A stretch of DNA of 64,000 nucleotides, from positions 62,001 through 126,000 of the forward strand of contig JAPPFM010000041.1 in assembly GCA_028821605.1 (NCBI GenBank), given 5' to 3'. The stretch is from Candidatus Poribacteria bacterium (GTDB lineage Bacteria; Poribacteria; WGA-4E; WGA-3G). The notes under the pieces were generated by a model. The model had not been told where the DNA came from. It saw nothing but the letters and a program-made list of their open reading frames with translations, and did not search any database. Made by a program: the position numbers and the translations under genes. Each line of letters starts with the position of its first letter. The first letter of the stretch is position 1. Below are positions 33,863-53,709 of this stretch, in pieces.

Positions 33863-34615
33863 ATGCGCATCCAAATCCAAGCCGATGTTGGGGACGGCAT
33901 CACGTTCCCCGTTAATTACAACCATCTACTCGCAGGCGTAATCTACCGATTCCTCGCCGAATCCGACCCTGAATACGCCTCATTTCTACACGAGGAAGGT
34001 TACCGCGCTGCAGAGAAACGTTTCAAACTCTTCACTTTCTCGCAACTCATGGCGGAACGCCGACGCGTTACCGGTGAGAAGATCCATTTCCGTTCAACTT
34101 TAACGTGGTCGGTCTCTTCCCCAGTAGAACGATTCTTATCCCATTTCGCGGATACATTGCTAACGGAAGGTAGCTTATCCTTTGGTCAGCGGCGGTTACC
34201 GATTAGAGATGTCACTATACCACGCATCCCCCGTTTCCGATCAGAAATGCATTTCCGATGCCTCTCCCCGATTGTAATGACCACCACGCGCGAGCGGGAT
34301 GGCAAACAAGCAATGCACTATTGCATGCCCGACGATCCAGCACTCTCCGAACTCATCCGTCAGAACCTAATCCGCAAACACGAAGCAATTCACGCTCGCG
34401 TTCCCCACGACGATACCCTGACCTTCGCGTTTGATAAAAACTATATTGATAGGCGAAAGGGACGCGTCACTCGTCTCGTAGATTACAAAGGTATCAAGAT
34501 AAGAGGCACAATGTGCCCATTCCGTGTCACTGGAAGTCCTGCGTTAATCCAGATCGGTTACGAATGCGGTTTCGGCGACAAAAATAGTGCTGGTTTCGGC
34601 ATGGCAGAAGTATAA
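33863..34615 (+). CDS. cas6: CRISPR-associated endoribonuclease Cas6
   Basis: A 250-residue repeat-specific endoribonuclease that cuts the pre-crRNA inside each repeat. The N-terminal region has the VNYNHLLAGVIYRFL stretch with a histidine in the usual catalytic neighbourhood. The C-terminal glycine-rich loop, GYECGFGDKNSAGFGMAEV, is diagnostic of Cas6. A GGAGG site lies upstream of the ATG. It is the first gene of the locus and is separated from cas8 by a second promoter. Cleavage is expected before the last 8 nt of the repeat (ATCGAAAC), giving a typical 5' handle; that position is inferred from other type I-B systems. Confidence 0.93.
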   Translation: MRIQIQADVGDGITFPVNYNHLLAGVIYRFLAESDPEYASFLHEEGYRAAEKRFKLFTFSQLMAERRRVTGEKIHFRSTLTWSVSSPVERFLSHFADTLLTEGSLSFGQRRLPIRDVTIPRIPRFRSEMHFRCLSPIVMTTTRERDGKQAMHYCMPDDPALSELIRQNLIRKHEAIHARVPHDDTLTFAFDKNYIDRRKGRVTRLVDYKGIKIRGTMCPFRVTGSPALIQIGYECGFGDKNSAGFGMAEV

Positions 34616-36086: not shown

Positions 36087-37118
36087 ATGTCTAAACACCT
36101 AATCGGATTAACTCTAATTGACGCGCCGCATTCTGCCCTAAACAACGCTGGGACGGAAGCCTCCCAGGCAACTGAAAACATTGTTGCTGTCAAAAAACTT
36201 CAGAAAGGAGGAAATACCTATCCCTATGTTTCGGGACAAGCATGGCGAAATTGGTGGCGCACTACCCTTGAGCAAGAATTTGATGATTGGAGCAGTTCAC
36301 CCATAGAACGTGAGAAGAAAATCGCTTTTACTGCTGCTGACCCGGTGACTTACGACGATGACGATGTCTTTGGCTATATGCGAGCACAAAGCGAAATGCA
36401 GGGGAAGAAAAAGGTTAATGTAACGGTAACCCGCTTATCCCCTCTCAAGTGTTCACCCCTTATTTCAATTGATCCACAGATCCCAACAAACGATTTTGGT
36501 GTCATGGCACGCCAAGAAGATGATCCTGTGCCTTATGAACATCAATTTTATTCTTGTATCTTACAAGGTATCTTTTCCTTAGACCTCAATGCGGTCGGTA
36601 CTTTTTCGGATATTAATAGGACGGGCTATAAGAACATTGCGTCAAGTTATGTTCAAACTATTGAGGACGCAGGCGGCACACAAGTTAATGATACTTCAGA
36701 GTGGACACTCCCAAAAGAGATTCGGATTAGACGCTGTCAACAGACCCTCGAAGCACTTCCGATTCTCAGTGGCGGTGCAAAACTGACATCACATCTCACG
36801 GATGTTACACCAAAATTAATTGTGCTTTCAGTGCTTGATGGAGGCAATCATCCTTTCATGAATTTAATGGTTGAGCGAAATAGAGTCGGTGAATTATCCG
36901 TAGAGGCGCTGCGCGAAGTTATAGAGGATTACAAAGACCGATTCTGTGACGCGATTTACATCGGTAGACGGAGCGGGTTTATGGATGAATTAGATGAACA
37001 ACTCAACGATTTGGCCACCAATAATAATCTGCCGTGCGAAATTGTTTACGATTCGCCAAATAAAGTGATCGCCCAACTCTCACAAAAGTTAGAAACTCAC
37101 ATCGGAGACGCACCATGA
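36087..37118 (+). CDS. cas7: Cascade backbone protein Cas7 (Cst2/DevR family)
   Basis: A 343-residue RAMP protein that polymerises along the crRNA spacer. The start, MSKHLIGLTLIDAPHSALNNAG, and the following PYVSGQAWRNWWRTTLEQEF are typical of the Cst2/DevR group, once called CRISPR autoregulators. The GGAKLTSHLTDVTPK region is near residue 230. A CAGGAGG site precedes the ATG, which lies 2 nt after the cas8 stop. The cas5 start overlaps its stop (ATGA), so the two are translationally coupled and stoichiometry would be set by ribosome-site strength. Confidence 0.93.
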   Translation: MSKHLIGLTLIDAPHSALNNAGTEASQATENIVAVKKLQKGGNTYPYVSGQAWRNWWRTTLEQEFDDWSSSPIEREKKIAFTAADPVTYDDDDVFGYMRAQSEMQGKKKVNVTVTRLSPLKCSPLISIDPQIPTNDFGVMARQEDDPVPYEHQFYSCILQGIFSLDLNAVGTFSDINRTGYKNIASSYVQTIEDAGGTQVNDTSEWTLPKEIRIRRCQQTLEALPILSGGAKLTSHLTDVTPKLIVLSVLDGGNHPFMNLMVERNRVGELSVEALREVIEDYKDRFCDAIYIGRRSGFMDELDEQLNDLATNNNLPCEIVYDSPNKVIAQLSQKLETHIGDAP

Positions 37119-37843
37119 AGGTCCTTCGGATTCGCATTACTGGATGGGTTTCGTCGTTTCGGAATCCGCTATTCATTAGTGGATTCCAACCGACACTCCC
37201 TTTGCCTCCACTCTCAGCAATATATGGTCTCCTCACTGCTGCGAAAGGGGAATGGGTTACACCGCACGATACCTCAATCGGATTCGTTTTTCGCAGTAAC
37301 GGGAAAGCAGTTGACTTAGAAACTGTCTATGAATTCGCAGGGAAATTAGATGCTAAATCAAATATCAACAGACGCGAATTTCTTGTTGATCCCGAACTCT
37401 ATCTTTATATACCTGAAATGCGGTTGAAGGAAGCATTTGAACGTCCGCGCTATCCCTTGCTCTTAGGACGTTCTTCTGATCTGGCAACTGTGGAATCAAT
37501 AGCGGAAATTGAATTAGAGAGTAGATCGGAAACGACCTATCAAGATACGCTGCTCCCCTTTCCTGATGCACAACTATATGGACAGGTTCAGGCACTCCCA
37601 ACTCATTTCACAGCAGAAATCCCGCGCCGTCCTTGTGGCACTCGTGCCTATTGTCTGATAACAGAAAAAATTGTGTACCATGGCGATGTCTGGCATGATC
37701 CAAAAATGGATTGGGGAGTCTATCTACACGAACGCATCCTTGGAGAATTTACAGTTCCAAACGAGCAAGCCAGGAAACCTACTGACAAAAATTATGAAAT
37801 CCCAGATGTGAAGGGACAACAGGGGCAACTTCCGGGCATCTAA
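37115..37843 (+). CDS. cas5: Cascade subunit Cas5 (Cas5t type)
   Basis: A 242-residue RAMP protein that binds the 5' handle of the crRNA and caps the Cas7 filament. It opens MKVLRIRITGWVSSFRNPLF and continues with TLPLPPLSAIYGLLTAAKGE, matching the conserved Cas5 N-terminal pattern (substitution G-W for the commoner R/A-F-W region), and a later Pro/Leu-rich RYPLLLGRSSDLATVESI block. The start overlaps the end of cas7 by four bases. The gene is followed by palindromes and a transposase remnant rather than directly by cas3. Confidence 0.9.
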   Translation: MKVLRIRITGWVSSFRNPLFISGFQPTLPLPPLSAIYGLLTAAKGEWVTPHDTSIGFVFRSNGKAVDLETVYEFAGKLDAKSNINRREFLVDPELYLYIPEMRLKEAFERPRYPLLLGRSSDLATVESIAEIELESRSETTYQDTLLPFPDAQLYGQVQALPTHFTAEIPRRPCGTRAYCLITEKIVYHGDVWHDPKMDWGVYLHERILGEFTVPNEQARKPTDKNYEIPDVKGQQGQLPGI

Positions 37844-38112: not shown

Positions 38113-38187
38113 AAGCGGACGTGGGGACCACACCCCTACGAAATCATGAAAACACTCATAACGGGCGTGGAGACCACGCCCCTACGG
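38113..38187. repeat. REP-like palindromes right of the RAYT remnant
   Basis: Two units end in CCCCTACG: one at about 38117-38140 (GTGGGGACCACACCCCTACG) and one at about 38164-38186 (GGCGTGG then CCACGCC). They are oriented opposite to the unit at 37854. The right-hand one supplies the GGAG that precedes the cas3 start. Confidence 0.8.
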
Positions 38188-38198
38188 AGAAAAAATCC

Positions 38199-40460
38199 AT
38201 GTCAATATTGCTTGCGAAAAGCGATCCACGGGAAAACCTTCAAGAACATACAGAGAATTGCCTTTCAGTATACGATAGCCTTCGACAACGGATGCCGTTT
38301 TTAGCCGAGATTACCAAAGAGCCAGATTTCTTTGAGCATCTTTTCTACGCTGTCGCACTCCACGATTTTGGAAAAGCAGCAACAGGTTTTCAACAGCAGC
38401 TCACCGATGACACACGATGGAACTATCGTCACGAAATCCTCTCAACTGGATTTGTAGTAACCCTACAATTACCGGAGGAAGCAAAGCAAGCAATCGCACT
38501 TGCCGTTTTAACACATCACAAGGATATTGGGACACTGAATGAGAAATATCCGTGTAGACCCAACAATGAGTATGGCTATCGAGATTGGCAAAAGCATGTT
38601 GATGAACTCACACCAAATTGGGATGCTTTGATGGAAATTCAGGAACAAGTCTCTCATTGGTTTCATAATTGGTTTCCGAACGCAACATGTTTATGGTTAC
38701 CTGTTACCTCACCCGATCAACTCATTAGCGGATACCGAGAATATCTCGATCCCTACTTGATTAACAAAGAAGATGGAGAATTGACCGCCTTACACGGCAC
38801 CTACGGCATGCTTATGCGCGGGTGTATGATTGCCTGTGATCATCTCGCTTCAGCAGGGAAAAACGAAATCCAGACAGCACTTGATAACCTTGCAGCAGAA
38901 CTGACGCAACATGTTAAAGAGAAGGCAAAAGAAAAAGGTCGACAATTTCACGGATGGGAACCCTTTCAAGAAGCCTCTGGTGAAACAATTGGACAGATCA
39001 TGCTCTCTGCACCGACAGGCTCCGGCAAAACCGAAGCGGCTTTGCTCTGGTCAGAAAAAAATCAATGTGAAACACTTGGAAACCGTGTCTTTTATGTTTT
39101 ACCTTATACAGCAAGTATCAATGCAATGTATGAGAGGTTAAAAGGACTCGTATCGGACGACAAAATCGGTATGTTGCACGGAAAAGCGAATTACTTTGTT
39201 TACAAAGATCTTGTGGATAAAGAATATACTTACCAAGAGGCAGCAGTAGGAGTTCGTGAGCAGCAGAATTTGACGAAGAAAATATGTCGTCCTTACAAGG
39301 TACTAACACCTTTTCAACTGCTAAAAGCATTTTTCGGTATACGCGGCTTTGAGATGCAGATGGCAGAGATGTCGCAAGGGCTTTTTATTTTTGACGAAAT
39401 CCACGCCTATGACCCGCACACCACAGCACTCATCCTAACAATGATAAAGAAACTCCGTGAAGATTATGATGCAAAATTCTGCATTATGACTGCTACAATG
39501 CCAAAGTTTCTTAAACAGATGATTAACAACGCACTTGGGCAACTCACACCGGTTGAAATGGATGCCCAAGAACGGAATAGATTCACTCGACACAGAGTGG
39601 TGTTGCTTGATAACAGCATCCACGAGGCAATTCCGTTGATTGAAGAACGTCTCATGCAAGGACAACAGGTCATGGTCGTCTGCAACACCGTCAATCAGGC
39701 ACAAAATGTATTTCAGAAATTGCAAAGTGTAACCGACAATGCTAAACTCCTTCACAGTCGATTTATCCTTCGCGATCGAGAGCGTATTGAACAGGAACTT
39801 GAAAACGCAGATCTCCTTGTCGGTACGCAAGCAGTTGAGGTTTCGCTTGACATTGATTTTGATTGCCTCTTTACAGAACCAGCACCGATAGACGCGCTCA
39901 TCCAACGTTTCGGGAGAATAAACAGGAAAGGCAAGAAGGGCCTCTGTGATGTTCACATAAGCAAAGAGGGTGGCGAATACGACAAATATATCTATTCTAC
40001 CGAAAAGGTTGAGCGCACTATAAAAGTGTTCGCATCTGTAGGTGATGACAACCTCCAAGAATCAGAAATCCAACGTCTAATTGATAAAGTCTATAGCGAA
40101 GGATACGATGAAAAAGAGGAAGATACGTTTATTAAGGCAAAACGGATGTTTGACAGACATCTACAAGACATCGTGCCATTTATTGAAGATGCTAAAGGAC
40201 GTAAAGAGTTTAACGAACTCTTTAAAAGTGTTGAGGTTGTGCCAATGTGCTATGAACAAGAATACTTAGCCGAGATTGACACGCGTAGGTATTATGAGGC
40301 GAGAGCCTATATCGCTCAAATCAGTTACAACCAGTTTGCACGACTAAAAAAAGAAAAGCAAATCAACGAAAATGAACGTATAAATCAGTGTTTCATAAAC
40401 GTGCATTATGATAAGACACTCGGTCTGATATTGGACGAATATAATCCAAATATCCTATAG
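38199..40460 (+). CDS. cas3: CRISPR-associated nuclease-helicase Cas3
   Basis: The start chosen gives MSILLAKSDPRENLQEHTEN, a normal Cas3 opening, for 753 residues; an ATG at 38121 is in frame but lies inside repeat sequence. The N-terminal HD nuclease has AVALHDFGKA (His55, Asp56), WNYRHEI (His78) and LTHHKD. The SF2 helicase shows Walker A APTGSGKTE (271-279), DEIHAYD, MTATMPKF and the motif VI region LIQRFGRINRKGKKG. It is recruited by Cascade after target binding to nick and degrade DNA. A palindrome lies directly before the ribosome site, and it is 355 bp from cas5. Confidence 0.95.
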   Translation: MSILLAKSDPRENLQEHTENCLSVYDSLRQRMPFLAEITKEPDFFEHLFYAVALHDFGKAATGFQQQLTDDTRWNYRHEILSTGFVVTLQLPEEAKQAIALAVLTHHKDIGTLNEKYPCRPNNEYGYRDWQKHVDELTPNWDALMEIQEQVSHWFHNWFPNATCLWLPVTSPDQLISGYREYLDPYLINKEDGELTALHGTYGMLMRGCMIACDHLASAGKNEIQTALDNLAAELTQHVKEKAKEKGRQFHGWEPFQEASGETIGQIMLSAPTGSGKTEAALLWSEKNQCETLGNRVFYVLPYTASINAMYERLKGLVSDDKIGMLHGKANYFVYKDLVDKEYTYQEAAVGVREQQNLTKKICRPYKVLTPFQLLKAFFGIRGFEMQMAEMSQGLFIFDEIHAYDPHTTALILTMIKKLREDYDAKFCIMTATMPKFLKQMINNALGQLTPVEMDAQERNRFTRHRVVLLDNSIHEAIPLIEERLMQGQQVMVVCNTVNQAQNVFQKLQSVTDNAKLLHSRFILRDRERIEQELENADLLVGTQAVEVSLDIDFDCLFTEPAPIDALIQRFGRINRKGKKGLCDVHISKEGGEYDKYIYSTEKVERTIKVFASVGDDNLQESEIQRLIDKVYSEGYDEKEEDTFIKAKRMFDRHLQDIVPFIEDAKGRKEFNELFKSVEVVPMCYEQEYLAEIDTRRYYEARAYIAQISYNQFARLKKEKQINENERINQCFINVHYDKTLGLILDEYNPNIL

Positions 40461-40996: not shown

Positions 40997-41051
40997 AGGG
41001 AGCAGGCATGCTCCGCCATGCCGTAAGCCAACCATGGGAGGAAAACCAATT

Positions 41052-42047
41052 ATGTCTCGAAACTACTACATCACCCAACCCGGCAGACTGCGCCGAAAGG
41101 ATAACACCCTTTACTTAGAGCCAGAGGAAGCACCACGGGTACCGATACCGGTTGAGGATATTGACGCACTCTATCTCTACGGCGAACTCGACCTCAACAC
41201 CAGACTCCTCAACTTCCTCACCCAAAAGCACATTCCGTTTCACGTGTTCAACTACTACGGCTACTATGCTGGGAGTTACTACCCCAGGGAATATCTCAAT
41301 TCCGGCTCCCTGCTTGTCAAACAGGTACAACACTATGAAAATCACACCAAACGGATGGCACTTGCACAGGAGTTTGTCGCCTCCGCTGTTTTCAATATGC
41401 TGCGAATTTTGCGGTATCATACGAACCGCGGTAAGGATTGCAGCGCACAAATTGAATCAATTGAGACGATCCTTGCAGAAAGCAGCACAGCAAAAAACAC
41501 AAATGAATTGATGGGTTACGAGGGCATCATCCGAGACACGTATTACACCGCATTCAATACGATTTTAGCGTTAAAAACGCCATTTGAAAAACGTGTTCGT
41601 CGTCCGCCAGACAATCCGATTAATGCCATCATCTCCTTTGGAAACTCGATGATGTATACAGCATGCCTTACGGAAGTCTACCGCACGCAGCTCAACCCGA
41701 CAATCAGTTTCCTCCATGAACCCGGCGACCGGCGATTCTCGTTAAGTCTTGACCTCGCCGAAATTTTCAAACCGCTTATCATTGACCGAATTATTTTCCG
41801 TTTGTTCAACCGTCAGCAACTCAACGAATCAAAACATTTTGAGACGAACATTGATGGGTGTTATCTCAATGAAAAGGGACGGAAATTATTTATTGCTGCA
41901 TTTGATGAACAATTAAAGCAGACCGTTTCGCATCGAAAGTTGAAACGGCATGTCTCTTATCAACGCCTCATCCGTTTGGAATGCTATAAACTCATCAAGC
42001 ACCTCGTTGGAATGGAGACCTATCAGGCACTGCGTCCGTGGTGGTAG
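41052..42047 (+). CDS. cas1: CRISPR integrase Cas1
   Basis: The start chosen gives MSRNYYITQPGRLRRKDNTL and follows GGGAGG at about 41035; an in-frame ATG at 41034 overlaps that site. The product is 331 residues. Metal-binding catalytic residues are Glu157 (GYEGIIRDTYY), His222 and Asp234/Glu237 (FLHEPGDRRFSLSLDLAEIFKP). Length and motifs match the type I-B Cas1 of the Tneap group. It integrates trimmed spacers at the leader side of the array with Cas2. Confidence 0.95.
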   Translation: MSRNYYITQPGRLRRKDNTLYLEPEEAPRVPIPVEDIDALYLYGELDLNTRLLNFLTQKHIPFHVFNYYGYYAGSYYPREYLNSGSLLVKQVQHYENHTKRMALAQEFVASAVFNMLRILRYHTNRGKDCSAQIESIETILAESSTAKNTNELMGYEGIIRDTYYTAFNTILALKTPFEKRVRRPPDNPINAIISFGNSMMYTACLTEVYRTQLNPTISFLHEPGDRRFSLSLDLAEIFKPLIIDRIIFRLFNRQQLNESKHFETNIDGCYLNEKGRKLFIAAFDEQLKQTVSHRKLKRHVSYQRLIRLECYKLIKHLVGMETYQALRPWW

Positions 42048-42086: not shown

Positions 42087-42350
42087 ATGTACATCATCCT
42101 CGTCTACGATATCGAAGTTGAACGGGTCGCAAAGGTGTGCAAATACCTCCGACAACATCTCAATTGGATTCAGAACTCAGTTTTTGAGGGGCAATTAACC
42201 AAAGCACAGTTCGCTCGCGTCAAATCTGGATTGGCAGCGATCACCGACCCAGAAAAGGATTCCGTTGTCATCTACCAACTCCGCGATGCACGGTGGATGA
42301 ATAAGGAGGTCATGGGCGTAGATAAAAATCCAGCGACAAACCTATTGTAG
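42087..42350 (+). CDS. cas2: CRISPR-associated protein Cas2
   Basis: An 87-residue ferredoxin-fold dimer partner of Cas1. It opens MYIILVYDIEVERVAKVCKYL with the Asp of the first strand, followed by FEGQLTKAQFARVK. It is the last gene of the operon and is immediately followed by the leader. The spacing of 39 bp from cas1 is consistent with one transcript. Confidence 0.95.
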   Translation: MYIILVYDIEVERVAKVCKYLRQHLNWIQNSVFEGQLTKAQFARVKSGLAAITDPEKDSVVIYQLRDARWMNKEVMGVDKNPATNLL

Positions 42351-42607
42351 GTACGCCTTCCGAGAAAATATAGATTGACGATTTGCTGTCGACCTCACCA
42401 AAATGTCCGTTCTCGGCAGATCCTAAACATGCCAATTTCAAGCAATTATCGCTATAAACCCACATCCTGTCTGATGCTGTCAACCTCCCAGAGAATTTGC
42501 ACGACCAGAGGTTGACAGCAAATCAACCCTGAAAATTGAAAAAAGAGAAATTAACTTGACGCGGATTGAGGGGATCGCGTATAATATTTTCATGGTTATC
42601 GTAGAGC
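42351..42607 (+). promoter_or_regulatory. CRISPR leader with promoter and repeated 12-13 nt motif
   Basis: The 257-bp stretch between cas2 and the first repeat has TTGACG (42556-42561) and TATAAT (42580-42585) 18 bp apart, so the pre-crRNA would start just before the array. TGCTGTCAACCTC at 42475-42487 pairs perfectly with its inverted copy GAGGTTGACAGCA at 42508-42520. A third copy in direct orientation, with one mismatch, is at 42384-42396. Confidence 0.8.
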
Positions 42608-45600
42608 CTTTTAATCGAACCAGTATGGAATCGAAACTTATGTGCGTTCTCATGGGTATTTTTTCAGCGTTGTCTTTTAATCGAACCAGTATGGAATCGA
42701 AACTATCTTCTTCCTCCAACACATCAAAAAACGGGTTGCCTTTTAATCGAACCAGTATGGAATCGAAACAGAAAATGACGTTTACAGAACCTCCAAGCGA
42801 TGACCCTTTTAATCGAACCAGTATGGAATCGAAACTCATTTCGGCGATCGGGTTTCGACGGTGTGTCTCTTCTTTTAATCGAACCAGTATGGAATCGAAA
42901 CTCACGCTAAACATGTGTTTGGAGGCAAATATGTTTATCTTTTAATCGAACCAGTATGGAATCGAAACGTTATTACTATCATTAGAGATGCACAACATTC
43001 CACTTTTAATCGAACCAGTATGGAATCGAAACGGGTAACACCCTGTAAGGACGAATTCAGTTGCTTTTCTTTTAATCGAACCAGTATGGAATCGAAACTT
43101 GCGATACTTCCGTTTCGATTTCACATCAACATCAACTTTTAATCGAACCAGTATGGAATCGAAACAGTCCAAGTCGCCGATCTCACTGTTCCACACATGC
43201 TTCCACTTTTAATCGAACCAGTATGGAATCGAAACAGAATACGGTTCTAAAAACACCCGTCGTGTTCACTTCTTTTAATCGAACCAGTATGGAATCGAAA
43301 CTGCTTTTGATGCTTTGAGAACATACACAGGGTCATCGCCTTTTAATCGAACCAGTATGGAATCGAAACCGTGAAAAAGTTGATGCGTGATCATGGCAAG
43401 GTTAACTTTTAATCGAACCAGTATGGAATCGAAACGTGTTTCCTTACTGGACTCAGACGGGATAATAAACTCTGCTTTTAATCGAACCAGTATGGAATCG
43501 AAACAGTGGTTTATGCGTTGGGTTAGGTAACTCCAAAACGCTTTTAATCGAACCAGTATGGAATCGAAACAACTCTGGAAAGACCACATAGGGCATAACC
43601 TCTTTGGCTTTTAATCGAACCAGTATGGAATCGAAACTTTTCAAGGTGCTTTAGGTAATCGGCATACTTCCTTTCCTTTTAATCGAACCAGTATGGAATC
43701 GAAACTTGCGCGTTGGTTATCGTATTTAAAAGGGAATTACTTTTAATCGAACCAGTATGGAATCGAAACTGTTTTTGGATACGTAGGGATTTCGATATGT
43801 TCGATGACTTTTAATCGAACCAGTATGGAATCGAAACTTGTGTCTTCTGGTATGTGGCGTGGCAATGCGATCTCCCTTTTAATCGAACCAGTATGGAATC
43901 GAAACTATAAACGAGGCAGCACCGCCTTTGCGTTCATCGATCTCTTTTAATCGAACCAGTATGGAATCGAAACCATCGACATTCGTGAACTTTGTCCAGT
44001 CGTGTGTGACTTTTAATCGAACCAGTATGGAATCGAAACACAGGTGCAACTGTTCTGCATGTAGATGAAAGTTTTCTTTTAATCGAACCAGTATGGAATC
44101 GAAACTGATAACACTGCCACCAGTTTGCTCGTTAATTGATTTCCTTTTAATCGAACCAGTATGGAATCGAAACTCGGAAGCGTTACGCCTGTGATGCTAT
44201 CAGCATCCGACACTTTTAATCGAACCAGTATGGAATCGAAACAGCGAACGCAATCAGTGCCGTCTATACCTATACCGCTTTTAATCGAACCAGTATGGAA
44301 TCGAAACAGTATGTAGCCAGTGCTCGCGTCCTCTCTCGCCCACTTTTAATCGAACCAGTATGGAATCGAAACTCCAGTTCTATCTGCTTGTTCTGTAAAA
44401 GTGCTTTCTTTTAATCGAACCAGTATGGAATCGAAACTTGTTCCATTGAAAGATACGGCTGTAAAGTTATACTTTTAATCGAACCAGTATGGAATCGAAA
44501 CCCAGGTTTGGGCGCAACGTGTGAATTCTGATGCTGACTTTTAATCGAACCAGTATGGAATCGAAACTTGCGCCATATCGTAATATCATGGTAGGGAAAA
44601 TAACTTTTAATCGAACCAGTATGGAATCGAAACTGAAACGACGAAGTGCTACATTCGTAGGTGAATCCAAGCTTTTAATCGAACCAGTATGGAATCGAAA
44701 CGTTGCCAGGTAAATGGCATCATCATACGAAATTTCACTTTTAATCGAACCAGTATGGAATCGAAACGGTCTCTGAGGATTTTGATTTTGATGATAAGTT
44801 TGCCTTTTAATCGAACCAGTATGGAATCGAAACGTTGCTGTTTTTGTAGTGCCTGATCTTTACATGGAGCATTCTTTTAATCGAACCAGTATGGAATCGA
44901 AACTATCTACAGGAATTTACGTACATGGATATTGGTGGACCTTTTAATCGAACCAGTATGGAATCGAAACCCAGGTTTGGGCGCAACGTGTGAATTCTGA
45001 TGCTGATACCTTTTAATCGAACCAGTATGGAATCGAAACTGTAGTAAAGGGGGTTATCGTTAATTCGGTCTTGGCTTTTAATCGAACCAGTATGGAATCG
45101 AAACCGTATCGATTCAATGATATTGGGGGTTCTTTCTCAAACTTTTAATCGAACCAGTATGGAATCGAAACTCTATCCTTGCCGTCTTTAGAGATAGGCA
45201 TTAGACTTTTAATCGAACCAGTATGGAATCGAAACTGCAACCGAATGCCCCGACACAGCCGAATGACCCGACTTTTAATCGAACCAGTATGGAATCGAAA
45301 CGCAAGTATGGCTATTATGAGGGATGGGACGTTTGTCTTTTAATCGAACCAGTATGGAATCGAAACTTCTGGTGCGCATGCGGCGATCTCGATAGCGACG
45401 AACCTTTTAATCGAACCAGTATGGAATCGAAACTCAGCAACGGGTGGACTCTCGCCTCGGATGTATGCCTTTTAATCGAACCAGTATGGAATCGAAACCC
45501 GTCTGAATGCGGATTTTACGGCTTGGATAGGCTTTCTTTTAATCGAACCAGTATGGAATCGAAACTCGGCTTGTATCGGAATTACGGGTTGCCTTTCTAA

Positions 45601-48600
45601 CCCTTTTAATCGAACCAGTATGGAATCGAAACTGAGTCGTATATCAAGGCACAGTATGCAATGGGTACACCTTTTAATCGAACCAGTATGGAATCGAAAC
45701 TTTTATCTTCGATCATTGCTTCTTGATCGTAGTTACTTTTAATCGAACCAGTATGGAATCGAAACTTATACGGTACAACCCACAGATTTTTTCGACTATA
45801 TTTCTTTTAATCGAACCAGTATGGAATCGAAACGGAAGCGGAACAGCAAGGGCTTTTGGAGGTTGTTGACTTTTAATCGAACCAGTATGGAATCGAAACC
45901 TCCAGACACAACCCTTCTCATATCTCCACCCCTTACTTTTAATCGAACCAGTATGGAATCGAAACATGCTCACCCATATTTGATCGGCTATCAATTCATC
46001 GTCTTTTAATCGAACCAGTATGGAATCGAAACGCGAGCAAAGACTTACCTGAAGGCGGAACAGTCAGCTTTTAATCGAACCAGTATGGAATCGAAACGAA
46101 GAGGATGAAGTTTTACGCGACGGAGTCGATTGTCTTTTAATCGAACCAGTATGGAATCGAAACCTGAACAAGCACATTCTTTTCGACTGGGGAATCCGAC
46201 TTTTAATCGAACCAGTATGGAATCGAAACGGATTTTTGAAAGGCTTTTTGACTACGAGATCGGTAACTTTTAATCGAACCAGTATGGAATCGAAACGTTC
46301 GCAGTTGATCGCCCACCACACCGACGGGTGAGTGACTTTTAATCGAACCAGTATGGAATCGAAACTGATCTCACCCGACGTGCCGTCTATCGCAAATGTG
46401 CTTCTTTTAATCGAACCAGTATGGAATCGAAACATCCCTTCTGTTCTTGGAGCGTATCAGTTTCATGAACTTTTAATCGAACCAGTATGGAATCGAAACA
46501 CTCGGACATTTTGGCGGTGATGGTGCTATCCGTGCTTTTAATCGAACCAGTATGGAATCGAAACAATCGTTTCCAATACTGCCAATAATGTCTATCGTCT
46601 CTTTTAATCGAACCAGTATGGAATCGAAACAAAGTCATATCTTTGCTTGAATCATAACTGTAATCCGTCTTTTAATCGAACCAGTATGGAATCGAAACTC
46701 TACAGATGTTTTAATTGTCCCCAGTGATGGCTCATCTTTTAATCGAACCAGTATGGAATCGAAACAGCAGCTCCTCACCGATTCGCGCTTGCAGTCTAAA
46801 CGCTTTTAATCGAACCAGTATGGAATCGAAACGATCAAACATCTATGAGTTTGACAGCGAGGACTTTGCTTTTAATCGAACCAGTATGGAATCGAAACTG
46901 ACGAAGCACAACGGCAAGCCGAGCGTGAAGCCTGCCTTTTAATCGAACCAGTATGGAATCGAAACCTTCTTTGTTGGCGAAAGTGTCTATCATGTCAATG
47001 ACTTTTAATCGAACCAGTATGGAATCGAAACGGGTCTTACGATCTCCCCTGGGCGGACGCAATGATGCTTTTAATCGAACCAGTATGGAATCGAAACCCA
47101 CTTATGAAGCAAGAAACGCTCTCACTTCAGTCACTTTTAATCGAACCAGTATGGAATCGAAACGTATTCTTTGAGGGGAGTCTCTTTAAACTGACAAGCT
47201 TTTAATCGAACCAGTATGGAATCGAAACCTTTGACCGCATGTTATCACCCCACATCCGCACAACTTTTAATCGAACCAGTATGGAATCGAAACTTGCTTG
47301 ATTTCTCTACGTCTTTCAAGTGCTACAACTTTTAATCGAACCAGTATGGAATCGAAACACATGCAGATTCGTGCCATCAAACGCCATCGAATTGGCTTTT
47401 AATCGAACCAGTATGGAATCGAAACTCCTGATATGCCGGCAAGTTTGAAACAAAAGGGTACCGCTTTTAATCGAACCAGTATGGAATCGAAACACGGTAT
47501 GGGTGCGTATATCACGCGTGTCACTGCGCTTTTAATCGAACCAGTATGGAATCGAAACTCTGTACTTGCGTAGATGTCTTGTAGGGTTTCAAGGCTTTTA
47601 ATCGAACCAGTATGGAATCGAAACCATCCCAATGATGCATATCACACCGCAACAGGTCACTTTTAATCGAACCAGTATGGAATCGAAACTGCTGTAGACA
47701 ACATCTGCGCGCTTTCTAAAATCTGCTTCTTTTAATCGAACCAGTATGGAATCGAAACTTGATACTCACACCAGAGCGACCGCTCTCAGAGCGTTCTTTT
47801 AATCGAACCAGTATGGAATCGAAACTCGAAAATCACGTTGTATGCCGACGGCACATCTTACCTTTTAATCGAACCAGTATGGAATCGAAACAGATAATCA
47901 TAGACCTCCATATTCGCCGCCTGCGCCTCTCTTTTAATCGAACCAGTATGGAATCGAAACGGTCTTGACGGAAGGTTATCGTGAATATGTGTTCTCGCTT
48001 TTAATCGAACCAGTATGGAATCGAAACATATCGAAGCAAGCGGACGGATAGAAGAGCTTACTGTCTTTTAATCGAACCAGTATGGAATCGAAACGTGATT
48101 TGAAATATACGTCCGTGACGGGAATCTCACTTTTAATCGAACCAGTATGGAATCGAAACTGAACAGCAGAAAATCAAAGCGCGCTTCGATCCTATCAACT
48201 TTTAATCGAACCAGTATGGAATCGAAACTTGGTCTATGATGCGGGTATTACAGATGAGGGACAGCCTTTTAATCGAACCAGTATGGAATCGAAACTCAAC
48301 GAAGAGATGATATTTGATGCTGAAACCTTATTCTTTTAATCGAACCAGTATGGAATCGAAACGTTCTCTTGGGGCGAAGTGGTAGGAACTGGGAATACCT
48401 TTTAATCGAACCAGTATGGAATCGAAACCCTGCATGGGGGGGCAACAGGCGCGACGGCTTTCGCAACTTTTAATCGAACCAGTATGGAATCGAAACCAGA
48501 CTTGCTCAAGATTACCAACTGCTCTAATGACTCACTTTTAATCGAACCAGTATGGAATCGAAACTTTCCTCGGCGGTATGGATATGGCTTGAATCCAAAG

Positions 48601-51600
48601 CGCTTTTAATCGAACCAGTATGGAATCGAAACGTTAGATGAACAAGTATTAGTAGGGCGTGAAGAACCCCGCTTTTAATCGAACCAGTATGGAATCGAAA
48701 CTCCATTTTAGTAAAAAATCACGTGCGGTTGTAAGCGAACTTTTAATCGAACCAGTATGGAATCGAAACAAGCGAAGATCAGGGCTTAGATTCCTTTCAT
48801 ATCCGTCTTTTAATCGAACCAGTATGGAATCGAAACACATTCACAGAATAAGTAACATCATCAGAATCGAGTACTTTTAATCGAACCAGTATGGAATCGA
48901 AACTGATGCTATCGGCTTCTGGATTGGGTGTCAAAGTTGACTTTTAATCGAACCAGTATGGAATCGAAACACCGTATCTGTTCTTTGACATTGGATTTCT
49001 CCTTTTCCTTTTAATCGAACCAGTATGGAATCGAAACACCTTCTCACGATTTAGATCGCTCTGCTGTCCTTCACTTTTAATCGAACCAGTATGGAATCGA
49101 AACGAGGATGCCGAGTTCACGCTTGTTGAATCTGCTTCACTTTTAATCGAACCAGTATGGAATCGAAACGATAAAAGTTTGGATACTGCAAACCTTGTTC
49201 CTCAACTTTTAATCGAACCAGTATGGAATCGAAACGTCTCGTAAGACTCTCACGAGACTCTGTATTGGACCTTTTAATCGAACCAGTATGGAATCGAAAC
49301 ATCCTGAAATACAGTGTATTCCCTTACGAAAACCTGTCTTTTAATCGAACCAGTATGGAATCGAAACGCGTGTAAAGCAACTTTGTTGATAATACGATGT
49401 CCTCTTTTAATCGAACCAGTATGGAATCGAAACAGACGATACGATCACACCTGCGATGTTGGATGCTGACTTTTAATCGAACCAGTATGGAATCGAAACA
49501 CAGATTTTAATTGGCGAAATTGGAAAGCAGAGATTCTTTTAATCGAACCAGTATGGAATCGAAACCATGTTTTACACCTCAATAAAAGCGGGGACTTACA
49601 CCTTTTAATCGAACCAGTATGGAATCGAAACCTATAATCTGTAGAAATCATTGAAAATTGTAGTGTACTTTTAATCGAACCAGTATGGAATCGAAACTTT
49701 ATCTCTGATGAACAGATCATCAAGGCTCTTGAACTTTTAATCGAACCAGTATGGAATCGAAACAGGCGTGGGAGTTTAAGGTTCTGAGCGTTCAAGCAAA
49801 GCAGCAGCTTTTAATCGAACCAGTATGGAATCGAAACTAAGACTATATGATGCTGCGAATGGCAGAAGAACTCTTTTAATCGAACCAGTATGGAATCGAA
49901 ACGCGAACCCTCTTCGCGGTGCATTCGTCGCCGCTTTCTCTTTTAATCGAACCAGTATGGAATCGAAACCGGTTCATCTTTCAACACGACGACAAAAGTG
50001 TTAACCTTTTAATCGAACCAGTATGGAATCGAAACTTAACAAAAGTCATCTGAACATCAGGATCAAAACTTTCTTTTAATCGAACCAGTATGGAATCGAA
50101 ACTTGTTAGTCAAGTATCGGTGAAAAGTTAAGTGTGGGCTTTTAATCGAACCAGTATGGAATCGAAACACAGATAATAACGGACTGCTGTATAGAGTATA
50201 CGGGCTTTTAATCGAACCAGTATGGAATCGAAACATATCTTAACACTCAAGGACCCGATCGAACATACCGACTTTTAATCGAACCAGTATGGAATCGAAA
50301 CGCACGAATATCATTAACGGCACATGGCGAGGCGAGCTTTTAATCGAACCAGTATGGAATCGAAACCACCCTCCAAAATCGCCTTTAAATCGCCTTTCGG
50401 CTTTTAATCGAACCAGTATGGAATCGAAACACAACGCCTCCACAAATACCTTGACAGAACACGTGCCTTTTAATCGAACCAGTATGGAATCGAAACAGCG
50501 TCTGCGAATGTTGTCTACGACACGGATTCTGCCTTTTAATCGAACCAGTATGGAATCGAAACTTCCATAAATTCTTCACGCGTTCCGTCCATGCTTTTCT
50601 TTTAATCGAACCAGTATGGAATCGAAACTCAAAATATCCCAACTTCTCCGTCAACTCAATCGCCTTTTAATCGAACCAGTATGGAATCGAAACCCGCTAA
50701 TCAGAATTTTCATGGGTATCTCCGTAACTTTTAATCGAACCAGTATGGAATCGAAACATAGAAAAAATCCATGCAGCAGCGTATCATTTCGCCTTTTAAT
50801 CGAACCAGTATGGAATCGAAACATAACAGCGATCTTTGGGGAAACAAGTTCTTCAGAACTTTTAATCGAACCAGTATGGAATCGAAACATATCTATCAGC
50901 GTCTCGACAAGGTAATCGGGATCAACCTTTTAATCGAACCAGTATGGAATCGAAACCGTGGAAGGGAAACTGAACTTTGAGTCTTGGGAAGATAACTTTT
51001 AATCGAACCAGTATGGAATCGAAACAACGATAACACAATTATTATTCGTGAGGATGGCGGCCTTTTAATCGAACCAGTATGGAATCGAAACAGCGTTCAG
51101 CACGGAGATCGGATCATCGCTAAACTCCTTTTAATCGAACCAGTATGGAATCGAAACTGATTTCAAGGTCGCACTGGTCAATGAGAGTTGCGACTTTTAA
51201 TCGAACCAGTATGGAATCGAAACGACGAATTCAAAACGGATTGTGCAGTGGAATCGTATAGCTTTTAATCGAACCAGTATGGAATCGAAACCAATGACAA
51301 AATTGTATAAAAACGCAGGCATCTATGTCTTTTAATCGAACCAGTATGGAATCGAAACATTGAGATGTTCAGTGTCCCCGCAGACCCCGCCGTAACCTTT
51401 TAATCGAACCAGTATGGAATCGAAACGTTAAGAAAGGAATTGCTATGACAATCACGCTTGAAACTTTTAATCGAACCAGTATGGAATCGAAACCACGAAG
51501 TTCCACAAGACTGTCAAGTCGTTCCGCTTCCTTTTAATCGAACCAGTATGGAATCGAAACCCACAATAGAGTTCGTATGCTTGGGTTGCGGAGGCGAGCT

Positions 51601-53018
51601 TTTAATCGAACCAGTATGGAATCGAAACGAGTTTATTGAGTTTCAAACGGGTTACCCTCTACGTACTTTTAATCGAACCAGTATGGAATCGAAACTTCGG
51701 TAAAAGCCTATCGCCCTTCAACCTCCAGATCTTTTAATCGAACCAGTATGGAATCGAAACCGCTGCGCATGGGAATACCTCAGCATCCTCGAGAACTTTT
51801 AATCGAACCAGTATGGAATCGAAACAACCAACTCCGACCCCTGAAGAACCTAAATCCAAACTTTTAATCGAACCAGTATGGAATCGAAACTTGCCCATCT
51901 GGTGATTCCTTGGAACGATAGGTTTGACTTTTAATCGAACCAGTATGGAATCGAAACTCTGCTGAACTTTCGCAGTCGGTTGAGCAACGGTACTTTTAAT
52001 CGAACCAGTATGGAATCGAAACTTCATTCGACTGCTCTGAAATCTGCCATGCAGGTTCGTCTTTTAATCGAACCAGTATGGAATCGAAACTGATCTTCAT
52101 AGACGAGATAACGTCCTCGAACCCATCTTTTAATCGAACCAGTATGGAATCGAAACACAACGCACCCTTGACCTAAAAGAGCGTGAACTTGCTTTTAATC
52201 GAACCAGTATGGAATCGAAACCAGTCGTGCCTTCATTTGATAGTGGCTCTCGCCCCCAGCTTTTAATCGAACCAGTATGGAATCGAAACCCTGAAAGACG
52301 CGAAGGCATTTGGACAGCCGATTTCACTTTTAATCGAACCAGTATGGAATCGAAACATGGTTCGGACTGCCCGGATTACAATCGCCCATCACTTTTAATC
52401 GAACCAGTATGGAATCGAAACCTATATGCCTCCATAGCGTGTTATCATACGGCGATGACTTTTAATCGAACCAGTATGGAATCGAAACCGACCCACACAG
52501 CGGACAATGCCACTTGAAAACGTCCCTTTTAATCGAACCAGTATGGAATCGAAACATGTGCATATAGAGGAGCATGCGCGAAATATCATAGACTTTTAAT
52601 CGAACCAGTATGGAATCGAAACCCAGACTCGTCAATTCTACCCGGAAACTTCCCGAATGCTTTTAATCGAACCAGTATGGAATCGAAACTGTGGTTCTGT
52701 ATCATGGCGTGGCGTAATCTTGAGCTTTTAATCGAACCAGTATGGAATCGAAACCAAAGTCTTCAGCTGCATCCAAGCCAATGGCATCGTCTTTTAATCG
52801 AACCAGTATGGAATCGAAACACAAAAAAGGTAGGAACCCCAAGAAACGCTACTATGCTTTTAATCGAACCAGTATGGAATCGAAACATGTGATGCGGTTC
52901 ATAGCCTACAATGTTCGGATGCCTTTTAATCGAACCAATATGGAATCGAAACTGATCTCAGAGATTTCAGGCGGCGAATACCCCTCAAAACTTTTAATCG
53001 AACCAGTATGGAATCGAA
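42608..53018 (+). CRISPR. CRISPR array, 157 repeats counted by eye, type I-B
   Basis: The 30-bp repeat begins CTTTTAATCG and ends ATGGAATCGAAAC, so crRNAs should carry the handle ATCGAAAC, close to the ATTGAAAC of other type I-B arrays. I counted 157 repeats and 156 spacers at an average period of about 66.6 bp. Spacers are mostly 34-40 nt; the longest is 44 nt at 49764-49807. Repeats I checked are identical except for the last two: the one at 52923 has a G-to-A change and the one at 52991 loses its last two bases. Decay there and a promoter at the other end place the leader beside cas2. One spacer sequence is present twice (44502-44537 and 44971-45009). Confidence 0.97.
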
Positions 53019-53145
53019 TTGGTTTTTGGCGGGTATTACTTTGATGATGCGAATAGATCCCAAATGGTTGCTAAGATGTCCATAATCCGCGTGAATATAT
53101 CCGGTTTTTTCTTTTTCATTTCTTTATCCTCGAGGAGTAATATGT
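53019..53145. other. Array-distal flank before the membrane protein gene
   Basis: No repeat or gene is present. A ribosome site, GAGGAG, lies at the end of the stretch. T-rich runs around 53100-53125 are not preceded by a convincing stem. Confidence 0.4.
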
Positions 53146-53529
53146 ATGCGATTTCTCTCACCAAATAAACAGAAACAGGAAACCGCCAGATTTGCTGGAG
53201 GTATTGTCTCCTTTGTCGGTGCTATGCTTGTCATGAGTGGTTACAGAACTGAAGATCTATTTTTGGTTGGCGCACTGCTGCTTATCTGGTATGGTATGTC
53301 GTGGTTTGTCTACCGGACGGATCCAGAGAAAATCACGCATTGGCTACAGCAATTATGGTATTTCCTACTTTTTTTGGTATTCTCGGTTCTCTGTGGCGTT
53401 ATTGCAGCATATCTTCCGGGCTGGATCGCCCATGAGATAGCAGGGATTCTGATTAACCTCGTCGTTTTCTTCTCTTTTCCGATACTTCTTTTCTGCCGCG
53501 GGGGTTCGTCAAAATCGGACACCTCTTGA
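53146..53529 (+). CDS. Small four-helix membrane protein beside the CRISPR array
   Basis: A 127-residue protein with about four hydrophobic helices (GGIVSFVGAMLVMSG; FLVGALLLIWYGMSWFVY; WYFLLFLVFSVLCGVIAAYL; IAGILINLVVFFSFPILLF) and charged ends. A GAGGAG site precedes the ATG. No family is recognised. It sits between the truncated last repeat of the main array and an orphan repeat about 30 bp after its stop, so it is enclosed by array-derived sequence. It may be a CRISPR-adjacent membrane protein, an insertion, or an unrelated gene near a decayed array end. Confidence 0.6.
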   Translation: MRFLSPNKQKQETARFAGGIVSFVGAMLVMSGYRTEDLFLVGALLLIWYGMSWFVYRTDPEKITHWLQQLWYFLLFLVFSVLCGVIAAYLPGWIAHEIAGILINLVVFFSFPILLFCRGGSSKSDTS

Positions 53530-53561
53530 TTTATTTTATCATAAAACCTTGACGGACAGAC

Positions 53562-53709
53562 CTTTTAATCGAACCAGTATGGAATCGAAATTTGTGAAAT
53601 GGTTGTCGGTTATCGGTTGTCGGCACGCTTTCAATCAAACCAGTATGGAATCGAAACATAGTCTCTTTGCCGATAGCCAATAGCCGACAGCCATTCCCCC
53701 TTTTAATCG
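53562..53709. CRISPR. Orphan CRISPR repeats mixed with dispersed repeat sequence
   Basis: A near-full repeat lies at 53562-53590, a second with two mismatches at 53628-53657, and a 10-nt fragment, CTTTTAATCG, at 53700-53709. The intervening 'spacers' (37 and 42 nt) contain GTTGTCGG and CCGATAGCC/GCCGACAGCC sequences, which are roughly complementary to each other and occur as genomic repeats near 60.2 kb. They are therefore not ordinary phage-derived spacers. Confidence 0.8.

What the first reader, a model, noticed from the sequence alone, without database searches (positions are those of the whole stretch)
44502..45009. Same spacer present twice with different lengths
Spacers at 44502-44537 (36 nt) and 44971-45009 (39 nt) are identical over their first 36 nt; the second has three more bases (TAC) before the next repeat. 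A plain duplication of a repeat-spacer unit would copy the length exactly. The difference fits two independent captures from the same protospacer with different end trimming, with six other spacers acquired in between.
Basis: partly seen in the sequence, partly recalled or inferred. Interest (0 to 1): 0.6.

Follow-up and report, generated by a model that had tools for sequence, protein, structure and literature searches.

The report
Same virus fragment captured twice, differently trimmed
A sponge-symbiont bacterium's CRISPR memory holds the same foreign DNA fragment twice, 36 and 39 bases long, most likely because it was captured on two occasions with the far end trimmed at a different base, which is normal behaviour for this kind of immune system.

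Summary
Spacers 29 (44502-44537, 36 nt) and 36 (44971-45009, 39 nt) of a 156-spacer type I-B array share their first 36 nt. They are the only repeated spacers in the array; the next longest shared string is 13 nt. The leader lies to the left, so the 36-nt copy is the newer one, and the shared end is the leader-facing (5') end. Indirect evidence favours two captures. In related Poribacteria arrays, overlapping spacers show CCN just before the 5' end (5 of 5 overlaps with at most one mismatch; 6 of 10 in all), so the fixed end is the PAM end. The 3' end carries a mild end-anchored base bias whatever the length, as expected if it is trimmed variably. Other repeated spacers in these arrays are exact-length copies, and only one of 39 possible 3-nt deletions would turn one unit into the other. 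Published base rates favour duplication over re-capture, which tempers this. PAM-anchored, variable-end capture is already known for type I-B, so the pair is ordinary; side results on end biases are more interesting.

The parts
33863..34615 (+). cas6
   Evidence: TIGR01877, E 3.7e-41; PF01881
34693..36084 (+). cas8b1/cst1 (type I-B)
   Evidence: TIGR01908, E 1e-39
36087..37118 (+). cas7/cst2/devR (type I-B)
   Evidence: TIGR02585, E 1.4e-63
37115..37843 (+). cas5b
   Evidence: TIGR01895, E 3.8e-41
38121..40460 (+). cas3 (HD + helicase)
   Evidence: TIGR01587 and TIGR01596
40487..40996 (+). cas4
   Evidence: TIGR00372, E 5.8e-25; PF01930 E 7.1e-53
41034..42047 (+). cas1b
   Evidence: TIGR03641 type I-B Cas1b, E 3.3e-138
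42087..42350 (+). cas2
   Evidence: TIGR01573, E 5.8e-13
42351..42607 (+). leader, with a sigma-70-like promoter 42556-42585 and a 13-bp inverted repeat 42475-42487/42508-42520
   Evidence: lies between cas2 and the first repeat; the degenerate repeats are at the other end
42608..53020 (+). CRISPR array, 157 repeats of 30 nt (155 perfect), 156 spacers of 34-40 nt (one of 44)
44502..44537 (+). spacer 29 (36 nt), the newer copy
44538..44970 (+). repeats and the six unrelated spacers 30-35 between the two copies
44971..45009 (+). spacer 36 (39 nt), the older copy, same first 36 nt plus TAC

Best explanation
A type I-B CRISPR-Cas system of a Candidatus Poribacteria symbiont captured the same protospacer on two occasions. 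Cas4-Cas1-Cas2 fixes one end of the fragment at a CCN PAM, so both captures begin at the same base (inferred from relatives). The PAM-distal 3' end is trimmed by a process that is only loosely ruled and mildly sequence-sensitive, here to 39 nt in the older event and 36 nt in the newer. Six other spacers were taken up in between. Shown here: the sequences, the array polarity, the PAM side in relatives, and end-anchored base biases at both ends. Inferred: that the source DNA continues with TAC, and that trimming rather than a later indel made the difference.
For: (1) Polarity: the leader with a TTGACG-18-TATAAT promoter-like site is at the left next to cas2, and degenerate repeats are at the right, so the shared end is the 5', leader-facing end of the spacer. 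(2) PAM: overlapping spacers in related arrays show the source DNA 5' of a spacer. 6 of 10 such flanks are CCN, and 5 of 5 from overlaps with at most one mismatch (CCG, CCT, CCT, CCG, CCA). The chance of CC is 0.052 per flank and 7.6e-6 for the four mismatch-free ones. (3) 3' end: the last bases favour A at -1, disfavour G at -3 and favour T at -4. The cross-validated score is higher at the true end than 1-5 nt inside (p 3e-23). Both observed ends score positive (36: +0.75, 39: +0.11 log2). (4) A length difference of 3 is expected in 13% of independent pairs. (5) Exact copies in relatives keep their length (4 sets). (6) A 3-nt deletion giving the 36-nt unit has 1 possible start of 39. (7) Spacers flanking the two copies are unrelated.
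Against: No protospacer was found in any collection searched, so TAC as source sequence is unproven. In SpacerPlacer's data 695 of 805 repeated-spacer candidates were duplications and only 8 re-acquisitions plus 7 independent insertions (passage read). Related arrays do contain exact copies, so copying happens here. The newer copy is a prefix of the older one, so the array itself cannot be excluded as source by sequence alone, although its 5' flank (AAC) is not CCN. The PAM was read in relatives, mostly G017, not in this genome. The end model ranks 39 low (5-7% of lengths 33-39). Flanks from overlaps with three or more mismatches are CCN in only 1 of 5.
Confidence: 0.83

Rival explanations
1. 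Copying inside the array (slippage or recombination between repeats) made a second copy of the unit, and a 3-nt deletion or insertion at the spacer-repeat border followed.
For: Duplication is the commonest source of repeated spacers in public arrays. Exact copies occur in four sets in related arrays, two of them adjacent and two not.
Against: Needs duplication, loss of the rest of the block and a flush indel. The 155 of 157 perfect repeats, all 30 nt, show almost no mutation. Only 1 of 39 deletion starts gives the observed pair. Other copies keep exact length.
Confidence: 0.1
2. The newer spacer was re-captured from the older spacer's own DNA in the array, with a shorter end.
For: The newer sequence is wholly contained in the older one.
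Against: The older spacer's 5' flank in the array is the repeat end AAC, not the CCN seen before spacers in relatives. No other spacer in the array shows this.
Confidence: 0.04
3. Assembly artefact: two strain variants or a mis-assembled repeat graph merged into one array.
For: The genome is a draft in 60 contigs; reads were not available; the G016 triple copy lies at a contig end.
Against: The shared stretch is only 66 nt, and both junctions (GATGCTGA-repeat and GATGCTGATAC-repeat) must exist in the reads because an assembler does not invent TAC. The contig is 290 kb.
Confidence: 0.03

Closest known systems
Variable spacer size in type I-B adaptation, Haloarcula hispanica (Li et al. 2017, NAR 45:4642; only the title was seen, in reference lists)
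   Same: Type I-B; [quoted passage not shown]
   Different: Archaeal experimental system; here natural arrays of Candidatus Poribacteria. The text was not held, so motifs could not be compared.
Cas4/Cas1 prespacer processing in types I-G and I-C (PMC10504553, abstract and passages)
   Same: PAM end set by Cas4; the non-PAM end is trimmed separately, leaving overhangs of slightly varying length, and integrates at the leader side.
   Different: In the I-G system of that paper Cas4 is fused to Cas1; here they are separate genes. There non-PAM cleavage is sequence-independent; here a mild end bias is seen.
Spacer duplication by repeat misalignment (SpacerPlacer, PMC11472070, passages)
   Same: Produces repeated spacers in one array.
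   Different: Copies whole units, so lengths are expected to stay equal.

Membership tests
Type I-B CRISPR-Cas | Cas8b/Cas7/Cas5/Cas3 effector genes of I-B type | tested here: met
   TIGR01908, TIGR02585, TIGR01895, TIGR01587 above cut-off
Type I-B CRISPR-Cas | Adaptation genes cas4, cas1 (I-B type), cas2 | tested here: met
   TIGR00372, TIGR03641, TIGR01573
Type I-B CRISPR-Cas | Cas6 and 30-nt repeats with a regular array | tested here: met
   TIGR01877; 157 repeats
Independent double capture of one protospacer | Shared end is the PAM end | tested here: met
   CCN 5' flank in relatives, 5 of 5 near-exact overlaps, 6 of 10 in all; not measured in this genome
Independent double capture of one protospacer | The extra bases continue the source sequence | tested here: inconclusive
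   No protospacer found
Array duplication | Copied unit has the same length | tested here: not met
   36 versus 39 nt
Array duplication | Neighbouring units copied too, if a block was copied | tested here: not met
   Neighbours share nothing beyond chance

The most novel reading that the evidence does not exclude
Natural Poribacteria arrays alone record the geometry of the capture complex: a PAM-anchored frame with marks at positions 6 (G avoided) and 29 (C favoured), fitting a 23-bp duplex from 6 to 28, and a 3' overhang trimmed with its own base preference. The 36/39 pair is then one protospacer held in the same frame with an 8-nt and an 11-nt overhang. G avoidance at position 6 would be a capture filter that I did not find described (search, one partial library).
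Probability: 0.3. Interest if true: 0.45.

Novelty: new member of a known kind. Interest (0 to 1): 0.25.

Why it matters
A repeated spacer with one fixed and one variable end is a natural record of two encounters with the same element and of how the capture machinery measures DNA. Here it agrees with known type I-B behaviour in a phylum with no cultured model known to me. It also shows that PAM side and trimming preferences can be read from arrays of uncultured bacteria without any phage genome.

Tried and rejected
Protospacer hunt: the 36-mer with up to 3 mismatches in the own genome found only the two array copies, and in 87 genomes only those two. In viral contigs, an exact 26-mer, two wobble patterns from the open frame QVWAQRVNSDADT, a CCN-led 17-mer and a 20-mer gave nothing. 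blastn of the 39-mer in phages and plasmids gave only chance-level hits at E 6-7. The first 7,993 bases of the array against phages gave no match; the remaining part of the array was not searched there. The whole array against the own genome found no self-target, only repeat-like sequence.

Extra TAC from the leader by a wrong repeat cut: rejected, because the leader ends in AGC before the first repeat.

A second fork mark symmetrical to position 6: not seen. Position 29 shows C up and G down, not the mirror image (C down), and its signal is much weaker (p 9e-6). G at 29 is below background in 15 of 19 larger genomes and above in 4. The window's own array shows it only weakly (39 of 156 C).

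Literature searches: in their listings and in the passages that I opened I saw no description of this pair type in Poribacteria or of G avoidance at spacer position 6. The library is partial and most listed papers were not opened, so this is weak evidence of absence.

Full report
What is there. The window is part of a 6.0-Mb draft genome in 60 contigs. The 9 relatives of its Cas8b1 found in the genome collection are all Candidatus Poribacteria MAGs (57-93% identity). It carries a complete type I-B locus: cas6-cas8b1-cas7-cas5-cas3-cas4-cas1-cas2, then a 257-nt leader and an array of 157 repeats and 156 spacers, followed by degenerate repeats. The leader side is left, so spacer 29 is newer than spacer 36.

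The observation. Spacers 29 and 36 share 36 of 36 nt and then differ by TAC. No other pair in the array shares more than 13 nt. The pair is therefore far beyond chance.

Which end is fixed. No protospacer was found, so I read the PAM from spacers that overlap one another in arrays of related Poribacteria: first 1289 spacers of 18 genomes, later 1458 of 23 genomes. When one spacer covers the start of another, it shows the DNA just before it. Ten such flanks were seen over both scans. Six are CCN: G017 #30 CCG, #70 CCT, #48 CCT, #49 CCG, G034 #30 CCT (seen in #34), G026 #39 CCA. Four are not: G038 #24 GCG, G034 #23 TTT, G034 #30 as seen in #18 TAG, G004 #152 GAA. The five flanks from overlaps with at most one mismatch are all CCN. 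The four misses all come from overlaps with three or more mismatches, where the flank itself may have diverged; the same class also gave one CCN. So the PAM sits on the 5', leader-facing side, which is the end the pair shares. The limit of this evidence is that the four mismatch-free cases all come from G017, whose Cas8b1 is 57% identical to the window's (G017 is taken to be L071 by equal contig length).

How the other end behaves. Over 1453 distinct spacers the 3' terminal bases are biased: A at -1 (35%), G low at -3 (17%), T at -4 (36%). The T at -4 is above background in each length class from 34 to 40, though only slightly at 39 (by length). A simple end score, cross-validated, is higher at the real end than 1 to 5 nt inside. 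For this protospacer the model trained without the pair puts 46% (all arrays) or 69% (this array) on length 36, and 7% or 5% on length 39, among lengths 33-39. So 36 is the favoured end and 39 an allowed minor one. Two independent spacers have equal length with probability 0.20 and differ by three with probability 0.13.

Rivals. Repeated spacers elsewhere in these arrays are exact-length copies: G023 1/4, G063 2/6, G063 8/9 and a G016 triple at a contig end. This shows that copying happens in these bacteria and that it keeps length. A copy plus a 3-nt deletion would need the deletion to start at one place of 39, in an array whose repeats are almost unmutated (155 of 157 perfect). Against this, public arrays have about 46 duplications for each re-acquisition or independent insertion (695 against 15, passage of PMC11472070). 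Weighing these by judgement, not by a formal test, I put independent capture at about 0.83. Re-capture from the array itself is possible in sequence, because the newer copy is a prefix of the older, but the flank there is AAC, not CCN.

Comparison with the known. Variable spacer size set by the protospacer end is the subject of a 2017 paper on Haloarcula hispanica I-B (title seen only). PAM-end cleavage by Cas4 and separate trimming of the non-PAM end, with 22-23-bp duplexes and 5-7-nt overhangs, is described for other Cas4 systems (PMC10504553, abstract and passages) and a 23-bp duplex for E. coli (PMC10011333, passages). Two independently acquired spacers from one protospacer were reported in Legionella I-C priming (PMC5071653, passage). 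The pair is thus a natural example of a known process.

What is less ordinary. Two 5'-anchored marks lie inside the spacers: G is avoided at position 6 (163 of 1453, 11% against 25%; below background in 19 of 19 genomes with at least 20 spacers; p 1e-33) and C is raised at 29 (p 9e-6). Positions 6 to 28 span 23 bp, the duplex length of E. coli Cas1-Cas2. This fits a PAM-anchored frame, but position 29 is weak, the marks are not mirror images, and position 6 is also a base that type I-E Cascade flips out (PMC5904413, passage), so a cause at the interference step is open.

Noticed in passing
spacers of 23 genomes; window array 42608-53020, position 6 of each spacer: G is depleted at spacer position 6 (163 of 1453; 14 of 156 in the window), in all 19 genomes with at least 20 spacers. 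The cause, capture or interference, is unknown.
   Followed up: partly
L088 1480-1536 (own genome C56) and L089-L093: A single CRISPR-repeat-like element sits between tRNA-Lys(TTT) and tRNA-Glu(TTC) genes in 5 of 78 genomes searched, including the window's own; in L091 ARAGORN called only the tRNA-Lys. L089 has two copies with a spacer-like stretch between them. It may be an off-site insertion or a crRNA-like RNA.
   Followed up: partly
window 42475-42487 and 42508-42520: Perfect 13-bp inverted repeat (TGCTGTCAACCTC / GAGGTTGACAGCA) in the leader, with a similar TGCTGTCGACCTC further upstream; possibly a protein-binding site.
   Followed up: no
window 49764-49807: Spacer 108 is 44 nt, outside the 34-40 nt range of the other 155 spacers.
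   Followed up: no
G026 array, spacers 31 and 35 (locus L049): Two spacers match over 36 nt with 4 mismatches on opposite strands with nearly the same ends, as if one fragment from diverged sources was inserted in both orientations.
   Followed up: no
window 53021-53702: After the array, two more repeat-like units (53562, 53628) lie about 540 nt beyond the last degenerate repeat: an old array remnant.
   Followed up: no
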